Position numbers and translations under genes: made by a program. The notes under the pieces were generated by a model, which was not told where the DNA came from, searched no databases, and saw only the letters and a program-made list of their open reading frames with translations. From Ectopseudomonas composti (GTDB taxonomy: Bacteria; Pseudomonadota; Gammaproteobacteria; Pseudomonadales; Pseudomonadaceae), in the NCBI RefSeq assembly GCF_001567565.1, contig NZ_LSSW01000021.1, positions 186,001-250,000 on the forward strand: 64,000 nt of DNA, given 5' to 3'. This document shows positions 19,661-33,184 of the stretch, in pieces (position 1 is the stretch's first letter; each line of letters starts with the position of its first letter).

Positions 19661-21555
19661 CAGGCGCTCTGCTCCAGCTTCTGGCCGGCACTGCGCTTTT
19701 TCAGGTGAATCAGCAACAGCGAGATGGCCGCCGGCGTGACGCCAGGAATGCGCCCGGCCTGGCCGAGCGTGGCCGGACGGGTGTTGCCCAGCTTGAACTG
19801 GATCTCCTTGGACAAGCCGGAAATGCCGCTGTAATCCAGATCATCCGGCAGCTTGGTGTCCTCGCTGGCACGCAGCTTGGCGATCTCTTCCTGCTGGCGG
19901 TCGATGTAGCCGGCGTACTTGGTCTTGATCTCGACCTGCTCGGCCACCTGGTTATCCACAGCCGGGGATTCGGTCACTTCAGCCAAGGTGGCGTAATCGA
20001 TCTCCGGGCGAGCCAGCAGGTTGAGCAGGTTGTACTCGTGAGCCAGCGGCGTGCCGAAGCGGGTGGCGATGGCATCGCCCTGCGGCGTGCCCGGGCGCAC
20101 CCAGGTGCTTTTCAGGCGCTGCTCTTCCTGCACGATGCCCTCGCGCTTGGCCTCGAAGGAAGCCCAGCGCTGGTCATCGATCAGACCCAGCTCGCGGCCT
20201 TTCTCGGTCAGGCGCAGGTCGGCGTTGTCCTCACGCAGAATCAACCGGTATTCGGCACGCGAGGTGAACATGCGGTACGGCTCCTGAGTGCCCAGGGTGA
20301 TCAGGTCGTCGACCAGAACGCCGATGTAGGCCTCGTCGCGGCGCGGGCACCAGGCTTCTTTGCCCTGCGCGCGCAGGGCCGCGTTGCAACCGGCCAGCAG
20401 GCCCTGGGCGCCGGCCTCTTCGTAGCCGGTGGTGCCGTTGATCTGACCAGCGAAAAACAGCCCGCCGATGACCTTGGTCTCGAGGCTGTACTTGAGGTCA
20501 CGCGGGTCGAAGTAGTCATATTCGATGGCATAGCCAGGACGCATGATGTGGGCGTTTTCCATGCCACGAATACTGCGCACCACCTGCAGCTGCACGTCGA
20601 ACGGCAGCGAGGTGGAGATGCCATTGGGATACAGCTCATGGGTGGTCAGGCCTTCCGGCTCGATGAACACCTGATGGCTGTCCTTGTCGGCGAAGCGGTG
20701 GATCTTGTCTTCGATCGACGGGCAATAACGCGGGCCGATCCCTTCGATCATTCCCGAATACATCGGCGAGCGGTCGAGGTTCGCCGCGATGATTTCGTGG
20801 GTACGCGCGTTTGTGTGAGTGATCCAGCAGCTGATCTGCTGCGGCTGATGCTCACGCTTGCCAAGGAAGGACATCAGCGGCGTAGGGGTATCGCCGGGTT
20901 GCTCAGTCATCACCGAGAAATCCACGGAGCGGCCATCGATACGCGGTGGGGTGCCGGTTTTCAGACGACCGACGCGCAGCGGCAGCTCACGCAGGCGATG
21001 AGCCAGTGCGATCGAAGGAGGGTCACCGGCACGACCACCGGAGTAGTTCTGCATGCCGATGTGGATAAGTCCGCCAAGGAAGGTGCCTGTGGTCAACACC
21101 ACGGAGTCCGCATGGAATCTGAGGCCCATCTGGGTGACCACGCCTTTGACCTCGGCGTTTTCCACAATCAGGTCATCGGCAGCCTGTTGAAAAATCCACA
21201 GGTTGGTCTGGTTTTCCAGAATCTCGCGTACCGCAGCCTTGTACAGAATGCGATCAGCCTGAGCACGCGTTGCACGAACGGCTGGCCCTTTACGGCTGTT
21301 GAGGATGCGGAACTGGATGCCCCCTTTGTCGGTGGCGATGGCCATGGCGCCGCCAAGGGCATCGATTTCCTTGACCAGGTGGCTCTTGCCGATCCCACCG
21401 ATGGCCGGGTTGCAGCTCATCTGGCCAAGGGTCTCGACATTGTGGGTGAGCAGCAGGGTCTTCACGCCCATGCGTGCTGCAGCCAGGGCTGCTTCGGTAC
21501 CGGCATGACCGCCACCGATCACGATCACGTCAAAACGGGAAGGGAAATCCACCAC
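19660..21555 (-). CDS. mnmG: tRNA uridine-5-carboxymethylaminomethyl synthesis enzyme MnmG
   Basis: FAD-dependent partner of MnmE; together they build the cmnm5 group at U34 of several tRNAs. Of 631 residues, the FAD loop [17 protein letters not shown] lies at the start and [20 protein letters not shown] further on. It begins with two consecutive GTG codons (21555 and 21552), as in P. aeruginosa, with GAGG upstream. Two perfect DnaA boxes (19952-19960, 21060-21068) lie inside the coding sequence. Confidence 0.97.
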
Positions 21556-21569
21556 GCACCTCGTGCCTG

Positions 21570-22371
21570 TTGAGAAAGGGGGTTTTCAGAAAGGCGGCAA
21601 GTATAGGGACTTCAGCCTCTTGAATGAAGCCTTCTGCACAAAAAATAGCCAACCGGCAGGTGATCTGCATTCCACCGAGCGCCTTTACCTGACGACCTGT
21701 TTGCCAATGCGCGATACGTTCAGGCTTATAAAGAATAGAAAGAGAGAATGTTTATAAAGCTTGTTCTTTATGTTTATGTATGGTGCAGCACTTTTCTGTG
21801 GATAAAGCTCTGCAGGCCTCGCAGTATCTAATGTACAGCGAATGATAAGCCTGTGTTGATCCTGCTCGGTTCCATTGAGAAAGCTGCTGAACCCCTGTGG
21901 ATGGAAGTACCAGTTACCCACAGGGGCATTTACGCCCAGCTTTGTCATAGGGTTATGGGCAGGGTTTATGGGCGGTTTTCCACAGGGTTTATCCTGGCCT
22001 GAATAACTCTGAAAATAGTTTCCAGGCATGCATTTATTGCTGATCAGAGTTGGCTCGAATGCCATCCATGGAATGGTTGGGGAGTTTGCGGATTGTAGGA
22101 GGCGAGCATCTGCCAGGCGCATTTTCCGGGCAGATCCATTAGAGAGCTGGCTGTGGACTTCTGAATGAACAGCCTGCGAGGGCTTGCTGACGGCACGCAG
22201 CTATCCGCATGGCCAGGAAGTGAACGGCAGGAGGGGTCGAGCAGGGATCGATAATGGGCTGGTGCCACAGGCCATACAGCTGTGGATAAAAGTGCAAGGC
22301 AGCCGGCAGCCATGTATGCCAGGCGCGAATCGGCTAAGCACAGGGGCCAGTCGAGCTTTAGCCCACGACCT
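21570..22371. other. Origin-like intergenic region between mnmG and mnmE
   Basis: About 800 bp without a convincing gene. It contains an AT-rich tract (21725-21780), two perfect DnaA boxes (TGTGGATAA at 21797-21805 and 22281-22289), and near matches at 21896-21904 (TGTGGATGG), 21914-21922 (TTACCCACA), 21976-21984 (TTTTCCACA) and 21989-21997 (TTATCCTGG). TATGTTTATGT (21769), ATGATAAGCCTGT (21842) and TTACCCACA (21914) recur in the same order and nearly the same spacing in the dnaA-rpmH region. I read it as a second origin-like element or DnaA-titrating locus. Confidence 0.65.
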
Positions 22372-23739
22372 TCATTTACCGATGCAGAAGCTGGAGAAGA
22401 TCCGGCCCAACAGGTCATCGCTGCTAAAGGCACCGGTAATCTCGCCCAGGGCCTGTTGAGCCATGCGCAGGTCCTCGGCCAGCAGTTCACCGGCGCCCAT
22501 CAGGGTGAGCTGGTTGCGGCCGTGCTGGAGGTATTGCTCGGCCTGGTGCAAGGCTTCCAGGTGGCGGCGGCGGGCGCTGAAGCCACTTTCTGCGGTCTGT
22601 TGATAACCCATGCAGGCTTTCAGGTGATCGCGCAGCAGTTCCAGACCCTCGGCGGATTTGGCGGACAAGCTCAAGGTGACGTGGCCATCGGCGCTGGTTT
22701 CCAGCGCGACCGCCTCACCGGACAGGTCGGCCTTGTTGCGGATCAGCGTCACTCGCGCCGGATCCGGCCGCTGTTCGAGGAACTCCGGCCATAAGGCAAA
22801 CGGGTCGGCCGCCTCCGGGGCGGTGGAGTCGACCACCAGCAGCACCCGATCGGCCTCGCCGATGGCCTTGAGCGCACGCTCCACACCGATGCGTTCCACT
22901 TGGTCGTCGGTATCGCGCAAGCCGGCGGTGTCGACCACGTGCAGGGGCATGCCGTCGATGTGGATATGTTCGCGCAGCACGTCGCGCGTGGTGCCGGCGA
23001 TATCGGTGACGATGGCCGCTTCACGGCCAGCCAGGGCATTGAGCAGACTGGACTTGCCGGCATTGGGCCGCCCAGCGATGACCACGGTCATCCCGTCGCG
23101 TAGCAGAGCCCCTTGTCCCGCCTCGCGCAGCACTGTGGATAAGTCGGCGCGAACGATGTCGAGCTGGCTCAGTACGTGGCCATCGGCGAGAAAGTCGATT
23201 TCTTCCTCGGGAAAATCGATGGCGGCCTCGACGTAGATACGCAGTTTGATCAGCGACTCGGTCAGCGCATGCACGCGCTTGGAGAATTCACCTTGCAACG
23301 AACGCAGCGCATTGCGCGCCGCCTGCTCGGAGCTGGCTTCGATCAGGTCGGCGATGGCTTCGGCCTGGGCCAGGTCGAGCTTGTCGTTGAGGAAGGCACG
23401 TTCGCTGAACTCACCGGGCCGGGCCAGACGCGCGCCCAGTTCGAGGCAGCGGCGCAGCAGCAGGTCGAGTACCACCGGGCCGCCGTGGCCTTGCAGCTCG
23501 AGCACGTCTTCGCCGGTGAAGGAGTTCGGGCCAGGGAAATAGATGGCCAGGCCTTCGTCCAGGGTCAGTTGTTGATCAGCGTAGAACGGCCCGTGATGGG
23601 CGAAACGCGGTTTCAGCTCACGCCGGCAGATGGCCTGAGCCAGCTGCCCAGCCAGTGGGCCGGACACACGCACGATTCCCACGCCGCCACGACCCTGGGC
23701 AGTGGCGACGGCGGCTATAGTGTCTCGGGCGTGGTTCAT
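22372..23739 (-). CDS. mnmE: tRNA modification GTPase MnmE
   Basis: Potassium-activated GTPase that works with MnmG on wobble uridines. Its 455 residues have an N-terminal folate-binding domain ([15 protein letters not shown]), the G domain with GRPNAGKS (223-230) and DIAGTTRD, and the C-terminal CIGK whose cysteine is conserved. ATG 23739 gives the family length; ten extra codons upstream are not conserved. A perfect DnaA box lies within the gene (23134-23142). Confidence 0.97.
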
Positions 23740-23767
23740 CGCATTCACTCGCTGTGTGGCGGATAGC

Positions 23768-23793
23768 AAAACGCCCCAATCATGGGGCGTTTG
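23768..23793 (-). terminator. Hairpin terminator between yidC and mnmE
   Basis: AAACGCCCC and GGGGCGTTT arms around a 6-base loop (23769-23792), followed on the minus strand by a short T-run. It lies 27 bp after the yidC stop, so yidC transcription probably ends or is reduced here before mnmE. Confidence 0.78.
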
Positions 23794-23818
23794 CTTGGTG
23801 CTTGGAAGCTTTGGCGAA

Positions 23819-25564
23819 TCAGGCGCTGGCCGGTTTCGTCGCGGCTTGGATCTTGCGCGTAATGTACCACTGCTGGGCGATGGACAGGCAGTTGTTGACC
23901 ACCCAGTACAGCACCAGACCTGCAGGGAACCACAGGAAGAAGAATGTGAAGATGATCGGCATCAGCTTCAGCACGCGGGCCTGCATCGGGTCCGGCGGCG
24001 TCGGGTTGAGCTGCTGCTGGATGAACATGGTCGCGCCCATGATGATCGGCAGGATGAAGAACGGATCCTTGATCGACAGGTCGGTGATCCAGAACATCCA
24101 CGGGGCCTGACGCATTTCCACCGATTCCAGCAGCACCCAGTACAGGGCGAGGAACACCGGCATCTGCACCAGGATCGGCAGGCAGCCGCCCAGCGGGTTG
24201 ATCTTCTCTTTCTTGTACAGCTCCATCATCGCCTGGGACATCTTCTGGCGATCGTCACCGTGCTGCTCTTTCAGTGCCTGCAGTTTCGGCGATACGGCAC
24301 GCATGCGCGCCATCGAACGGTAGCTTGCGGCGGACAGCGGGAAGAAGATCAGCTTGATGATGATGGTCAGGACGATGATCGACCAACCCCAGTTGCCGAG
24401 CACGCCGTGGATGACTTCCAGCAGCCAGAAGATCGGCTGTGCCAGGAACCACAGGAAGCCATAGTCGACGGTCAGCTCCAGGCCGGGCGAGAGGGTACCG
24501 AGGTATTCCTGCAGCTTGGGACCGGCATAGAGCACAGCGCCGGTCTCACCTTGAGCGCCTGCCGGAACCTGCAAGGCCGAGCTGGTGAAACCAACGATGT
24601 AGTTACCCTGGCTGTCCTTGCGAGTCTGAATCTGGTTGGTGCTGTCCTTGGACGGTACCCAGGCGGTGACGAAGTAGTGTTGCAGCCAGGCGACCCAGCC
24701 ACCTTCCACGGTTTCCTTGAAGCTGTGCTTGTCGATGTCTTTCATCGACAGCTTCTTGTACGGCTCGTCCGGCGTCCAGACGGCGGCACCCAGATAGGTG
24801 GCGGTGCCGGTGGCGGTGGTGGAGGACGGGTCACCGCTGTTGTCGCGCTTGAGCTGGGCGAACAGATTGCCGCTCCAGGCCTGGTCACTCTTGTTATCGA
24901 CCAGATAACGCACGTCGACCTGATAGGCCGCCGGATCGATGCAGCCAGGCTTCTTCAGCTGTTGCTCACGCGCCGAGCATTGCGGGTTGAGACCACGCTT
25001 GAAGCTGTAGCGCTTGATGTAGTTGACGCCGTTCTCGCTGTAGGTGAGGTCGACCACCAGGCTGTCCTGGCCTTCGGCCATTTCGTAGCTCTGCTTCTCG
25101 CTGGACCACAGGGCACGGCCGCTGGATTTGTCCGGGGCGTTCTGGCCGATCAGACCACTTTGCGCCAGGTAGGTACGCTCGTTGCCGTTGTCGAACAGCT
25201 GGAAAGGTACGTCAGGGCGGTCCTGGCGACGCGGATACTGCGGCAGGCGCAGTTGCACGACATCACCACCACGCGGGTCGATGGCCAGATCGAGCACATC
25301 GGTCTTGACGCGGATCAGCTCATCGCTGGCTGCAGCGCTCGGTGCGACAGCGGCTGCAGTGGGCTCTGCCACGGCGGTCGGAATGTCGTCGCTAGCAGCG
25401 CTTGCAGTTGCAGCAGGTGTATCGGGCAGGGCAGGCGTCGCAGCGGTCGAGGTACTAACCTCGGCTGGCAGGGCAGCCTGGCCATAGTCCTCGTTCCATT
25501 GCAGGACCATGAGGTAGGACACGACTGCCAGGGCGACGATCAGGATCGAACGTTGGATATCCAT
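23819..25564 (-). CDS. yidC: Membrane protein insertase YidC
   Basis: Inserts and folds inner-membrane proteins, alone or with SecYEG; Fo subunits a and c, encoded nearby, are classical clients. The 581 residues have an N-terminal membrane anchor ([18 protein letters not shown]), an Ala/Thr/Ser-rich linker, the large periplasmic domain, then the conserved five-helix core from about residue 365 ([17 protein letters not shown]). It ends in a basic tail. It lies 2 bp after yidD. Confidence 0.97.
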
Positions 25565-25566
25565 GA

Positions 25567-25812
25567 TTATTCGGCCATCGAAGGGGAACGGGATGTTTTA
25601 ACGGGTGGAACCGGATCGAATCCGCCGGCATTCCAGGGGTGGCAGCGGCCCAGACGGCGCGCTGTCAGCCAGCCACCGCGCAGGAAGCCATGTTGCTCGA
25701 TGGCTTCGTAGGCATAGCAGGAACAGCTGGGGTAGAAGCGACAGTGACTGGCCATCAGCGGGCTGATGGCGTAGCGATAAACCTGGATACAGGCTAGAGC
25801 CGCTTTACGCAT
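25567..25812 (-). CDS. yidD: Membrane protein insertion efficiency factor YidD
   Basis: An 81-residue protein with the family pattern [21 protein letters not shown] and [17 protein letters not shown], and an amphipathic N-terminus that attaches it to the inner membrane near YidC. ATG 25812 overlaps the 3' end of rnpA by 8 bases, a common arrangement; a longer frame runs back into rnpA but lacks family support. Confidence 0.94.
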
Positions 25813-26209
25813 GGGGATTGTCGCTTGTCCCGGAGGGTGAGTCTGCGTTGCGACTGGGCCGGCTTCGGGCCAAGCGTTTCCAGAGCTTGCCGAACTGCTG
25901 AGCAAGTTCGTCATTCTCCAGATCACCTAGCCCTCTGCGGGCGACCACCACGATGTCCCAGCCTGTCAGGTTGTCCTGATTCAGGCGAAAGGACTCGCGG
26001 ATTTGACGCTTGATGCGGTTGCGCTCGACGGCGAGCTTGACGCTCTTTTTGCCGATCACCAGACCTAGGCGGGGATGATCAAGCTGGTTATCGCGCGCTA
26101 GCAGCAGGACACTTTTGCCCGGAGCTTTGCCGCTTGGGGAGTCGAAGACTGCCTTGAATTGCCGGGGAGTCAGCAGTCGCTTTTCCCGGTCGAAGCCTCG
26201 ACTCACCAC
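25805..26209 (-). CDS. rnpA: Ribonuclease P protein component
   Basis: Basic protein of 134 residues that helps the RNase P RNA cut tRNA precursors. It shows [20 protein letters not shown] at the N-terminus and the RNR-type motif [15 protein letters not shown]. Translation begins at tandem GTG codons (26209 or 26206), as in P. aeruginosa. It lies 13 bp after rpmH. Confidence 0.96.
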
Positions 26210-26222
26210 CTGTCTGGATGAA

Positions 26223-26357
26223 TTAGACAGTCAGACGCTTGCGGCCCTTGGCGCGACGACGCGACAGGACGGCACGACCGTTCTTGGTGGCCATACGGGC
26301 ACGGAAACCGTGGGTGCGAGCGCGCTTGATGGTGCTGGGTTGGAAAGTGCGTTTCAT
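26223..26357 (-). CDS. rpmH: 50S ribosomal protein L34
   Basis: A 44-residue, very basic ribosomal protein ([18 protein letters not shown] at the start, [12 protein letters not shown] at the end), identical in length to other gammaproteobacterial L34. It is the first gene of the rpmH-rnpA-yidD-yidC unit and is transcribed away from dnaA. Confidence 0.98.
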
Positions 26358-26379
26358 GGTGCGTTACCTGGGTGATCGA

Positions 26380-26874
26380 CTAGGGTCGGAATGACCCTGG
26401 TTTAAAGAGACCGGCAATTCTAGAGAAAGCCGCGCGGCAGGTCAATTTCCAACCAGCCTTATTCGCTAGATAGAAATAGAAAGAAAGGAAAGGGTTTAAA
26501 GCTCTTTTTCTATGTTTATGTTGATTAGCAGCGCCCTTGGCTGTGGAAAACCCTCTGCCAGCCACGCTGCTTGGGCTTGAGCGACGATGATAAGCCTGTC
26601 CAAAAGAGGTGTCTCGACTGTGCGTGCCCTGTATGTAGCCTGAGGATGAAACGGCGGTTTACCCACAGGCAGGTTATCCGCCCATTCGTCCCCAGGCTTA
26701 TGCAGACGCTTATCGGGTGCTTATCCACAAGGTTTATGAGCATGCTGATAAGTCTTGTGAATGTAACTAAGGCTTTGATTTTACTTGGCCATCTAACCGC
26801 TGTTATGTGGATAACTCGGTCGTTGACCGTTACAATAGCGGCTGTTTTTGCATCGCCGCCCGAGGGGATAGTCA
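26380..26874. other. oriC: Chromosomal replication origin region (oriC) between rpmH and dnaA
   Basis: About 500 bp, gene-free, in the classical Pseudomonas oriC position. Perfect DnaA boxes are TTATCCACA at 26721-26729 and TGTGGATAA at 26806-26814. Near matches are TGTGGAAAA (26542-26550), TTACCCACA (26659-26667) and TTATCCGCC (26674-26682). An AT-rich, A/G-strand-biased tract at 26461-26521 is a candidate unwinding element. A TACAAT hexamer at 26831-26836 could be the -10 box of the dnaA promoter. Confidence 0.88.
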
Positions 26875-28365
26875 GTGTCAGTGGAACTATGGCAGCAATG
26901 CGTCGAGCTTCTGCGCGATGAATTGCCGGCCCAGCAATTCAACACCTGGATCCGTCCTCTGCAGGTTGAAGCCGAAGGCGACGAGCTGCGCGTCTATGCG
27001 CCCAATCGTTTTGTACTCGACTGGGTCAACGAGAAGTACCTGGGTCGTTTGCTCGAATTGCTCGGTGAGCGCTCTGGTGGTTTGGTCCCTGCGCTTTCCT
27101 TATTAATAGGCAGCAAGCGCGCCGCGACTGCGCGCGTCGCACCGACGGCACCGCTTCCCGCCGCCGCACGCGCGGCTCAGGTCCAGGCTGCTGCTGCCGT
27201 CAGCAAGCCGGTTCCGCCGCCTGCTCAGGAAGAACCTTCGCGCGCCAGCTTCGACTCGATGGCCGGCTCCGCGCCGCAAGCGCCGACACCTGCTGTAGCG
27301 CCGCGTACCGAACGCACCGTGCAGGTCGAAGGTGGCCTCAAGCACACCAGCTACCTCAATCGCACCTTTACCTTCGACAACTTCGTCGAGGGCAAGTCGA
27401 ACCAGTTGGCCCGCGCGGCCGCCTGGCAGGTGGCGGACAACCCCAAGCATGGTTACAACCCACTGTTCCTTTATGGCGGCGTCGGCCTGGGCAAGACCCA
27501 CCTGATGCATGCCGTAGGTAACCACCTGCTGGCGAAGAATCCCAATGCCAAGGTGGTCTATCTGCATTCCGAGCGTTTCGTCGCTGACATGGTCAAGGCG
27601 CTGCAGCTCAACGCCATCAATGAGTTCAAGCGCTTCTACCGTTCGGTAGACGCGCTGTTGATCGACGATATCCAGTTCTTCGCCAAGAAGGAGCGCTCCC
27701 AGGAGGAGTTCTTCCACACCTTCAACGCACTGCTCGAAGGTGGCCAGCAGGTGATTCTCACCAGCGACCGCTACCCGAAGGAGATCGAAGGCCTGGAGGA
27801 GCGCCTGAAGTCGCGCTTCGGCTGGGGCCTGACCGTAGCGGTCGAGCCGCCGGAACTGGAAACCCGTGTGGCGATTCTGATGAAGAAGGCCGACCAGGCC
27901 AAAGTCGATCTGCCGCATGACGCCGCGTTCTTCATCGCCCAGCGTATTCGCTCCAACGTGCGTGAGCTCGAAGGCGCGCTGAAGCGGGTGATCGCTCACT
28001 CGCACTTCATGGGTCGGGACATCACCATCGAGCTGATCCGCGAATCGCTCAAGGACCTGTTGGCTCTGCAGGACAAGCTGGTCAGCATCGACAATATTCA
28101 GCGCACCACCGCTGAGTATTACAAGATCAAGATTACCGATCTGCTTTCCAAGCGCCGTTCTCGTTCGATTGCCAGGCCGCGTCAGGTGGCCATGGCCTTG
28201 TCGAAGGAGTTGACCAACCACAGCCTGCCGGAAATCGGTGTGGCCTTCGGCGGGCGTGATCACACCACGGTGTTGCACGCTTGCCGTAAGATTGCTGAAC
28301 TTAGGGGATCCGACGCGGACATCCGCGAGGACTACAAGAACCTGCTGCGCACCCTGACTACCTGA
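26875..28365 (+). CDS. dnaA: Chromosomal replication initiator DnaA
   Basis: AAA+ initiator of 496 residues. Domain I (1-80) is [16 protein letters not shown] and onwards; a variable Ala/Pro-rich domain II spans about 82-150. The ATPase has Walker A GGVGLGKT (201-208) and Walker B LLIDDIQ (261-267), and the DNA-binding signature [14 protein letters not shown] lies at 460-473. It starts at GTG 26875 with GAGGGGA upstream, and begins the plus-strand cluster dnaA-dnaN-recF-gyrB. Confidence 0.99.

Positions 28366-29655: not shown

Positions 29656-29656
<1 letters not shown>
28553..29656 (+). CDS. dnaN: DNA polymerase III beta subunit (sliding clamp)
   Basis: Ring-forming processivity clamp, 367 residues, with the normal start [29 protein letters not shown] and end VVMPMRL. 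Three repeated clamp folds fit the length. Its TAA overlaps the ATG of recF by one base (TAATG). Confidence 0.99.

Positions 29657-33184
<3,528 letters not shown>

What the first reader, a model, noticed from the sequence alone, without database searches (positions are those of the whole stretch)
21725..22289. Second origin-like region, paralogous to the dnaA-rpmH origin
The mnmG-mnmE gap repeats the landmarks of the dnaA-side region in order: TATGTTTATGT (21769 / 26511), ATGATAAGCCTGT (21842 / 26587) and TTACCCACA (21914 / 26659). Spacings are 73 and 72 bases against 76 and 72. Both also carry an AT-rich purine-biased tract on the left and perfect DnaA boxes on the right. This looks like an ancient duplication of an origin unit about 4.7 kb apart. 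I recall reports of two autonomously replicating chromosomal fragments in pseudomonads, but cannot confirm that this is one of them.
Basis: partly seen in the sequence, partly recalled or inferred. Interest (0 to 1): 0.72.

Follow-up and report, generated by a model that had tools for sequence, protein, structure and literature searches.

The report
Second copy of Pseudomonas replication origin
Next to its known starting point for copying the chromosome, this Pseudomonas keeps a second, older-looking copy of the same DNA-copying start signal, in the place where E. coli keeps its own; both copies are preserved in the family, which suggests that the start site moved during evolution.

Summary
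The mnmG-mnmE gap (A) and the rpmH-dnaA gap (B) align far above chance (65 against at most 32 in 500 shuffles), in the AT-rich tract as well as in DnaA boxes. Both hold the same module: AT-rich tract, box R1, R2 117 bp and R4 179 bp further on. All 26 Pseudomonadaceae loci examined (window included) and 9 of 9 named ones carry it in A. E. coli oriC lies in slot A with R1-R4 = 180 bp and R2 at 106. A profile from Pseudomonas B modules alone finds the mnmG slot of other families and E. coli oriC (E = 3e-5), a signal carried by boxes and spacing. In two genomes of another family with mnmG and dnaA 36-39 kb apart, the module sits at mnmG and the GC-skew minimum lies 1.3 kb from it. So A is the positional counterpart of the E. 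coli-type origin, B its paralogue. A's boxes are conserved, but its R4 is off-consensus in all 22 aligned loci: probably a subordinate origin. Firing was not testable. Two replicating elements in P. aeruginosa and paired origin predictions are in print; shared geometry and slot-switching are what this adds.

The parts
21556..22371 (.). region A, mnmG-mnmE gap that holds the second origin module
   Evidence: minus-strand mnmG begins at 21555 and minus-strand mnmE ends at 22372; four ORFs in or overlapping it have no Pfam hit; no Rfam hit
21732..21796 (+). AT-rich tract left of R1 in A (candidate unwinding element), AT 0.69 against 0.38 for the window
   Evidence: the 75 columns left of R1 average 0.78 conservation in 22 Pseudomonadaceae
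21797..21805 (-). A box R1, TGTGGATAA (perfect)
21842..21854 (+). shared element ATGATAAGCCTGT between R1 and R2, copy A
   Evidence: related sequence in both family alignments
21914..21922 (+). A box R2, TTACCCACA, 117 bp from R1
21976..21984 (+). A box R4, TTTTCCACA, 179 bp from R1
   Evidence: not a perfect box in any of 22 family loci
22281..22289 (-). further perfect box in A outside the module; not regular in the family
   Evidence: among the 22 loci with A read, a perfect reverse box beyond R4 only in the window and L065
26358..26874 (.). region B, rpmH-dnaA gap, the generally accepted Pseudomonas oriC
   Evidence: PMC3056050 and PMC3596284 passages
26474..26540 (+). AT-rich tract left of R1 in B, AT 0.64; the corresponding region was found open in DciA-depleted P. 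aeruginosa
   Evidence: PMC5109545 passages
26542..26550 (-). B box R1, TGTGGAAAA
26587..26599 (+). shared element ATGATAAGCCTGT, copy B
26659..26667 (+). B box R2, TTACCCACA, 117 bp from R1
26721..26729 (+). B box R4, TTATCCACA, 179 bp from R1
26806..26814 (-). dnaA-proximal box of B, no counterpart in A; a reverse box towards dnaA is common in the B slots of other Pseudomonadales
   Evidence: conservation 1.0

Best explanation
Region A is a second, complete copy of the DnaA-assembly module of a gammaproteobacterial oriC: an AT-rich tract next to box R1 facing left, then R2 and R4 facing right, with R1-R4 = 179 bp. It stands where E. coli has its oriC, directly upstream of mnmG. Region B, the accepted Pseudomonas origin beside dnaA, is its paralogue. 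The simplest history is that the mnmG-side origin is the older one, a copy of it was set beside dnaA in an ancestor of Pseudomonadaceae, and the copy took over. Inferred mechanism: DnaA binds R1, R2 and R4 in A as it does in B and can build the same complex over the AT tract. Because A's R4 is off-consensus in every aligned locus, while B's is perfect in at least 20 of 22, B should win and A should be a weak or reserve origin that also holds DnaA near the main origin. Shown: likeness of A and B within the family, geometry, conservation, slot. Inferred: homology with E. coli oriC, direction of copying, DnaA binding, any firing.
For: A-B alignment far above shuffles in the window; 21 of 22 family loci above all 60 shuffles; with boxes up to 1 mismatch masked 14 of 22 beat all 100 shuffles, up to 2 mismatches 13 of 22. 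Geometry rule met in A by 22 of 22 and in B by 25 of 26 Pseudomonadaceae loci; in the E. coli-containing order in slot A by 12 of 19 regions, E. coli oriC included, and in slot B by 0 of 10; none in shuffles, which were made for the Pseudomonadales regions only. Four loci with DNA inserted between mnmG and mnmE keep the module beside mnmG. Conservation in A: boxes 0.91-0.94, other core 0.72, flank beyond R4 0.44. Profile from B modules only: all 20 hits with E <= 1e-3 in 77 loci lie on the mnmG side, E. coli oriC E = 3e-5. GC-skew minimum at the mnmG slot in G033 and G157, with the module there. A published Halomonadaceae oriC motif (PMC7174414, passage) lies in slot A of all 7 genomes of family f33 and in 0 of the 5 B-slot stretches tested.
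Against: Outside Pseudomonadaceae the profile hits vanish when DnaA boxes are masked, so that homology rests on boxes and their spacing, which function could also enforce. Direct A-B likeness is mostly a matter of this family: 5 of 33 other Pseudomonadales loci beat their shuffles. Inside the family L011, L074 and L075 fall to shuffle level once boxes are masked. Only 5 of 35 other Pseudomonadales A slots and 1 of 35 B slots pass the strict geometry rule. Family f31 has the module in slot B, not A, in the 3 of 5 genomes examined; Chromohalobacter (mnmG slot not seen) and a Marinobacter MAG have B-slot hits, and some f33 B slots have marginal ones (E about 0.007-0.009). So an old pair with differential loss is possible instead of copying from A to B. 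Skew in the own contig points to neither slot (minimum at window -5151). There is no evidence at all that A initiates.
Confidence: 0.7

Rival explanations
1. A is a former origin that no longer initiates; its DnaA boxes are kept to hold DnaA near the origin (titration or datA-like control).
For: R4 in A is off-consensus in all 22 aligned loci. Perfect DnaA boxes are concentrated beside the origin: 24 of the genome's 54 lie in 72 kb left of the dnaA start, and two relatives show a similar excess.
Against: Titration alone does not require exact 117/179 spacing or the AT-rich tract, yet both are conserved.
Confidence: 0.3
2. A is the promoter region of mnmG, controlled by DnaA; origin-likeness is a by-product of DnaA boxes at a promoter.
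For: A lies directly upstream of mnmG and stays with mnmG when the locus is split.
Against: Full module geometry shared with B and, in its outer spacing, with E. coli oriC; slot-A modules that coincide with GC-skew minima in G033 and G157. No sigma-70-like promoter found by the simple scan (weak evidence).
Confidence: 0.15
3. A and B form one bipartite origin: DnaA bound at A loops to B across 4.7 kb.
For: Two box clusters near dnaA; bipartite origins exist in Bacillus and Helicobacter (PMC4285127 passages).
Against: That review says one of the two subregions has the unwinding element, whereas here both have an AT-rich tract. The spacer is about 4.7 kb against origins of up to about 2 kb there, and 4 of 26 family loci have further DNA inserted between the copies.
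Confidence: 0.1
4. The likeness is convergence or chance: DnaA boxes were arranged alike because the same protein complex requires it.
For: Outside the family the signal is carried by boxes and spacing.
Against: Within the family non-box sequence also matches in most loci, and the slot-B regions of most other Pseudomonadales have different box layouts.
Confidence: 0.1

Closest known systems
E. coli oriC (mnmG/gidA-mioC)
   Same: Same slot upstream of mnmG, R1 left-facing, R2 and R4 right-facing, R1-R4 180 bp; unwinding element on the mnmG side of R1 (recalled)
   Different: R2 at 106 instead of 117 bp; neighbour is mioC instead of mnmE; the E. coli dnaA gap (slot B) has one box and no module
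Pseudomonas oriC (rpmH-dnaA)
   Same: Paralogous module, same 117/62 spacing, alignable sequence
   Different: Perfect R4, extra dnaA-proximal box, opening shown in P. aeruginosa (PMC5109545, passages)
Two autonomously replicating elements of P. aeruginosa (Yee and Smith 1990; Jiang et al. 2006)
   Same: A second origin candidate in Pseudomonas
   Different: Papers not held; seen only as cited in PMC4403523 and as reference titles, so identity with the mnmG-mnmE gap is unverified
E. coli-like high-affinity site motif across gammaproteobacterial origins (Leonard and Grimwade 2015, PMC4451416)
   Same: Already notes shared site orientation and gaps, P. aeruginosa included, and a possible bipartite arrangement in Acinetobacter (passages)
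   Different: The passages seen do not speak of a paralogous second copy, nor of a change of slot
Paired oriC predictions (DoriC 10, PMC6323995; gammaBOriS, PMC7174414)
   Same: Two potential oriCs predicted in some gammaproteobacteria (passage); 105 chromosomes marked as containing two oriC sequences, 355 one (section)
   Different: In what was seen, taxa of the pairs are not named and paralogy is not discussed

Membership tests
gammaproteobacterial oriC (E. coli type) | R1, R2 and R4 DnaA boxes in fixed orientation with R1-R4 about 180 bp | tested here: met
   179 bp in A; 22 of 22 family loci meet the rule; R2 at 117, not 106
gammaproteobacterial oriC (E. coli type) | AT-rich unwinding tract next to R1 | tested here: met
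   AT 0.69 at 21732-21796; composition only, no melting assay
gammaproteobacterial oriC (E. coli type) | lies upstream of mnmG | tested here: met
gammaproteobacterial oriC (E. coli type) | coincides with GC-skew minimum | tested here: inconclusive
   own contig minimum at window -5151, 27 kb left of A and 32 kb left of B; met for slot A in G033 and G157
gammaproteobacterial oriC (E. coli type) | initiates replication in vivo or as a plasmid | not testable with these tools
   needs bench work
gammaproteobacterial oriC (E. coli type) | low-affinity DnaA sites, DnaA-trios, IHF and Fis sites | not tested
   no dedicated scan was run
bipartite origin | two box clusters of which one carries the unwinding element | tested here: not met
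   both copies carry an AT-rich tract left of R1; composition only
datA/DARS-type DnaA regulatory site | IHF-dependent DnaA-ATP hydrolysis or reactivation | not testable with these tools
   biochemical definition

The most novel reading that the evidence does not exclude
The working Pseudomonas origin is a transposed copy of an E. coli-type mnmG origin. The ancestral origin is still in place under selection and still usable, so Pseudomonadaceae carry two live, competing chromosomal origins 4.7 kb apart, while other families kept only the one or the other.
Probability: 0.35. Interest if true: 0.8.

Novelty: new variant of a known kind. Interest (0 to 1): 0.6.

Why it matters
Pseudomonas origins were described in 1990 as a class distinct from E. 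coli-type origins (title seen as a citation). The shared module, spacing and slot suggest instead one origin type that changed its site between mnmG and dnaA, with Pseudomonas caught holding both. That turns an old question, how a bacterial chromosome origin moves without killing the cell, into a direct test: which copy opens, and what happens when either is removed, in a laboratory strain such as P. putida KT2440.

Tried and rejected
GC skew in the own contig could not separate two sites 4.7 kb apart. Skew in f31 was ambiguous: G031 has its minimum 2.2 kb from the slot-B module, but the change-point score peaks 102 kb away, and G113 shows no clear minimum. With boxes masked in the targets, profiles found nothing outside the family, so no claim of non-box homology to E. 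coli is made. Protein reading of A was rejected: the four ORFs have no Pfam match up to E 0.01. RNA reading was rejected: no Rfam match at the gathering score in 21300-27100. Promoter and terminator scan of A: nothing. Gene conversion between A and B: within-genome A-B pairs score higher than permuted pairs (p = 0.0105), but this is not corrected for relatedness and is not used. In one search the marks for L022 and L030 mean nothing because their A regions were too long to be shuffled; they were dropped from the count (33 of 35 left). Also dropped there: L067, L068, L072, L077 (mnmG outside the first fetch; examined later). In one search, three of the 44 training cores were badly registered (L009 A, L010 B, L082 B) and were left in. 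In one search the L071 match at the stricter mask is not collinear. G130 (f18) was looked at in both slots and has at best a marginal hit in slot B (cA E = 0.023, cAB 0.022). Two motifs of PMC7174414 were compared with A and B: the genus motif favours A, but the family's trio motif occurs in neither.

Full report
Observation. The gaps align with score 65 against at most 32 in 500 shuffles and 24 for the reverse complement. Masking every DnaA box up to one mismatch leaves 44 against at most 27 in 100 shuffles, in the AT-rich tract; masking up to two mismatches leaves 29 against 26. No protein or RNA family explains region A.

Anatomy. A is the mnmG-mnmE gap, B the rpmH-dnaA gap. Each has an AT-rich tract, a left-facing box R1, then right-facing R2 and R4. 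Starts are 21797, 21914 and 21976 in A and 26542, 26659 and 26721 in B, so the spacings 117 and 62 bp are the same. B has one more box, towards dnaA, without a counterpart in A. Many B slots of other Pseudomonadales families, and the E. coli dnaA gap, have a left-facing box towards dnaA, so this one is probably the old dnaA control box (inference).

Relatives in the family. I fetched 25 Pseudomonadaceae loci besides the window. In 22 of the 26 both gaps could be read at once, and A scored above all 60 shuffles against B in 21 of 22 (L065 tied). With boxes up to one mismatch masked, 14 of 22 beat all 100 shuffles, and 13 of 22 with boxes up to two mismatches masked; L011, L074 and L075 are then at shuffle level. 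In the other four, DNA lies between mnmG and mnmE, and further stretches showed the module still beside mnmG with E from 2e-56 to 3e-74. The module is therefore present in slot A of 26 of 26 (22 by the geometry rule, 4 by profile). Nine named loci (six Pseudomonas, two Stutzerimonas, one Halopseudomonas) carry it in both slots, 9 of 9. In the A alignment the three boxes average 0.91-0.94 conservation, the rest of the core 0.72 and the flank beyond R4 0.44, so A looks selected. R4 of A is not the perfect box in any of 22 loci, while R4 of B is perfect in 20 of 22 in that table (of the two exceptions L082 is a registration failure of the script, L009 is real).

The E. coli connection. E. coli oriC lies between mnmG and mioC. 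Of 20 loci fetched from the order that contains E. coli-like genomes, 8 show the run mnmG, mioC, mnmE, yidC, rpmH, dnaA within one stretch, and a ninth shows it without a mioC match. Named Vibrio, Colwellia and Pseudoalteromonas loci show the run too. So slot A is the slot of E. coli-type oriC; that Vibrio oriC lies there is recalled. Where the rule below is met in that order, R1-R4 is 178-180 bp, as in Pseudomonas, with R2 at 105-106 instead of 117; the difference is about one helical turn. The rule 'R1; R2 at 105-107 or 115-118; R4 at 177-181; at most two mismatches each and four in all' is met by 22 of 22 and 25 of 26 (Pseudomonadaceae A and B), 5 of 35 and 1 of 35 (other Pseudomonadales A and B), 12 of 19 and 0 of 10 (the E. 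coli-containing order with K-12, A and B) and 0 of 10 and 0 of 14 (other class members with gaps of at least 200 bp). Shuffles, made only for the Pseudomonadales regions, gave none.

Profile test. A profile made only from 22 Pseudomonadaceae B cores was run on 77 loci outside the family, 565 kb. Both slots are in view in 63 of the 75 fetched loci, and in E. coli as two records. All 20 hits with E <= 1e-3 are on the mnmG side (two on the opposite strand), E. coli oriC among them with E = 3e-5; the first hit in a rpmH-dnaA slot has E = 0.0012. Controls: masking the boxes in the targets removes every hit, which counts against general homology. Reversed profiles give none; block-shuffled profiles give fewer and weaker hits, best 1e-5. 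Outside the family the evidence is thus box order and spacing, not general sequence. Direct A-B alignment beats its shuffles in only 5 of 33 other Pseudomonadales loci.

Which slot is the origin elsewhere. In G033 (family f33), mnmG and dnaA starts are 39 kb apart. The skew minimum is at 1211680, the module at 1210212-1210451 beside mnmG, and no hit with E <= 1 lies at dnaA. G157 of the same family repeats this: minimum 250572, module 249058-249283, dnaA at 213841 with a hit of E = 0.45 only. All seven f33 genomes of the sample have the module in slot A; of the five further B slots looked at, two have marginal hits at E about 0.007-0.009. A motif listed for Halomonadaceae origins in PMC7174414 (Table 1, passage) is in slot A of all seven and in none of the five slot-B stretches tested; it also occurs once elsewhere in each of the two long stretches. 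This suggests that f33 is Halomonadaceae (inference). Family f31 is the other way round: the module is at dnaA in G031, G089 and G113, the 3 of 5 genomes examined. Its skew is unclear: G031 has the minimum 2.2 kb from the module but a broad trough, and G113 is uninformative. Chromohalobacter and a Marinobacter MAG also have slot-B hits. The module has therefore stood in either slot, and Pseudomonadaceae have it in both.

Function. In DciA-depleted P. aeruginosa, open DNA was found next to R1 in the rpmH-dnaA region (PMC5109545, passages), and genome papers place oriC there (PMC3056050, PMC3596284, passages). B is thus the accepted origin. For A, binding and opening are inferred from the intact R1, the spacing and the conserved AT tract. 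The off-consensus R4 argues for a weaker site. I therefore favour a subordinate origin over pure titration or promoter control, without proof. The own contig's skew cannot decide.

What is in print. Two autonomously replicating elements of P. aeruginosa are cited in PMC4403523 (passage); the originals are not held. DoriC 10 mentions two potential oriCs in some gammaproteobacteria, of which only the one next to gidA was kept (PMC6323995, passage). gammaBOriS marks 105 chromosomes with two oriC sequences (PMC7174414; passages, and sections 5 and 11). Its genus Pseudomonas motif occurs in A in 16 of 35 and in B in 1 of 35 loci here, while its Pseudomonadaceae trio motif occurs in neither; its Pseudomonas set may thus include A-type sequence (inference). 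PMC4451416 describes a shared E. coli-like site motif that includes P. aeruginosa (passages). In ten paper searches (listings, and passages of the papers named) I saw no account of A-B paralogy or slot-switching; most subscription papers are not in that library.

Verdict. Observation confirmed, interpretation supported and extended: a retained second copy of an E. coli-type origin module, new as a variant, with firing untested.

Noticed in passing
own contig C21:141524-212814 (window coordinates about -44476 to 26814): 24 of the genome's 54 perfect DnaA boxes lie in 72 kb left of the dnaA start (1 within 100 kb to the right). Of five relatives searched, places near dnaA were listed for two: G257 has 22 left and 4 right, G211 19 and 3, within 100 kb. 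A one-sided DnaA-box zone beside the origin.
   Followed up: partly
L032, L038, L042, L046 (family f38) and L257: The block rpmH-yidC-mnmE between the two slots is inverted, so these genes point away from the mnmG slot. Module hits (E <= 1e-3) are at the mnmG side in L032, L038 and L257, and none was listed in L042 and L046.
   Followed up: partly
L019 (family f15): A and B align with score 56 against at most 34 in 60 shuffles, unlike most other non-Pseudomonadaceae loci, but without the R1-R2-R4 geometry: perhaps a separate duplication.
   Followed up: no
L266, L278, L281, right of dnaA: Module-like profile hits on the minus strand downstream of dnaA (E 3.6e-5, 5.9e-4, 8.2e-3), perhaps a third slot.
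   Followed up: no
L111 and L135: mnmG lies directly beside dnaA with only 216 and 198 bp between them.
   Followed up: no
window 30077-30092 and 30707-30722: Two perfect parS palindromes (motif recalled), both in the ORF 29656-30759, probably recF. PMC3909081 says that P. aeruginosa has its nearest parS sites in recF (passage).
   Followed up: no
L067, L068, L072, L077 with L186-L189: Four genus members have about 5-9 kb between mnmG and mnmE; the origin module stays with mnmG.
   Followed up: partly
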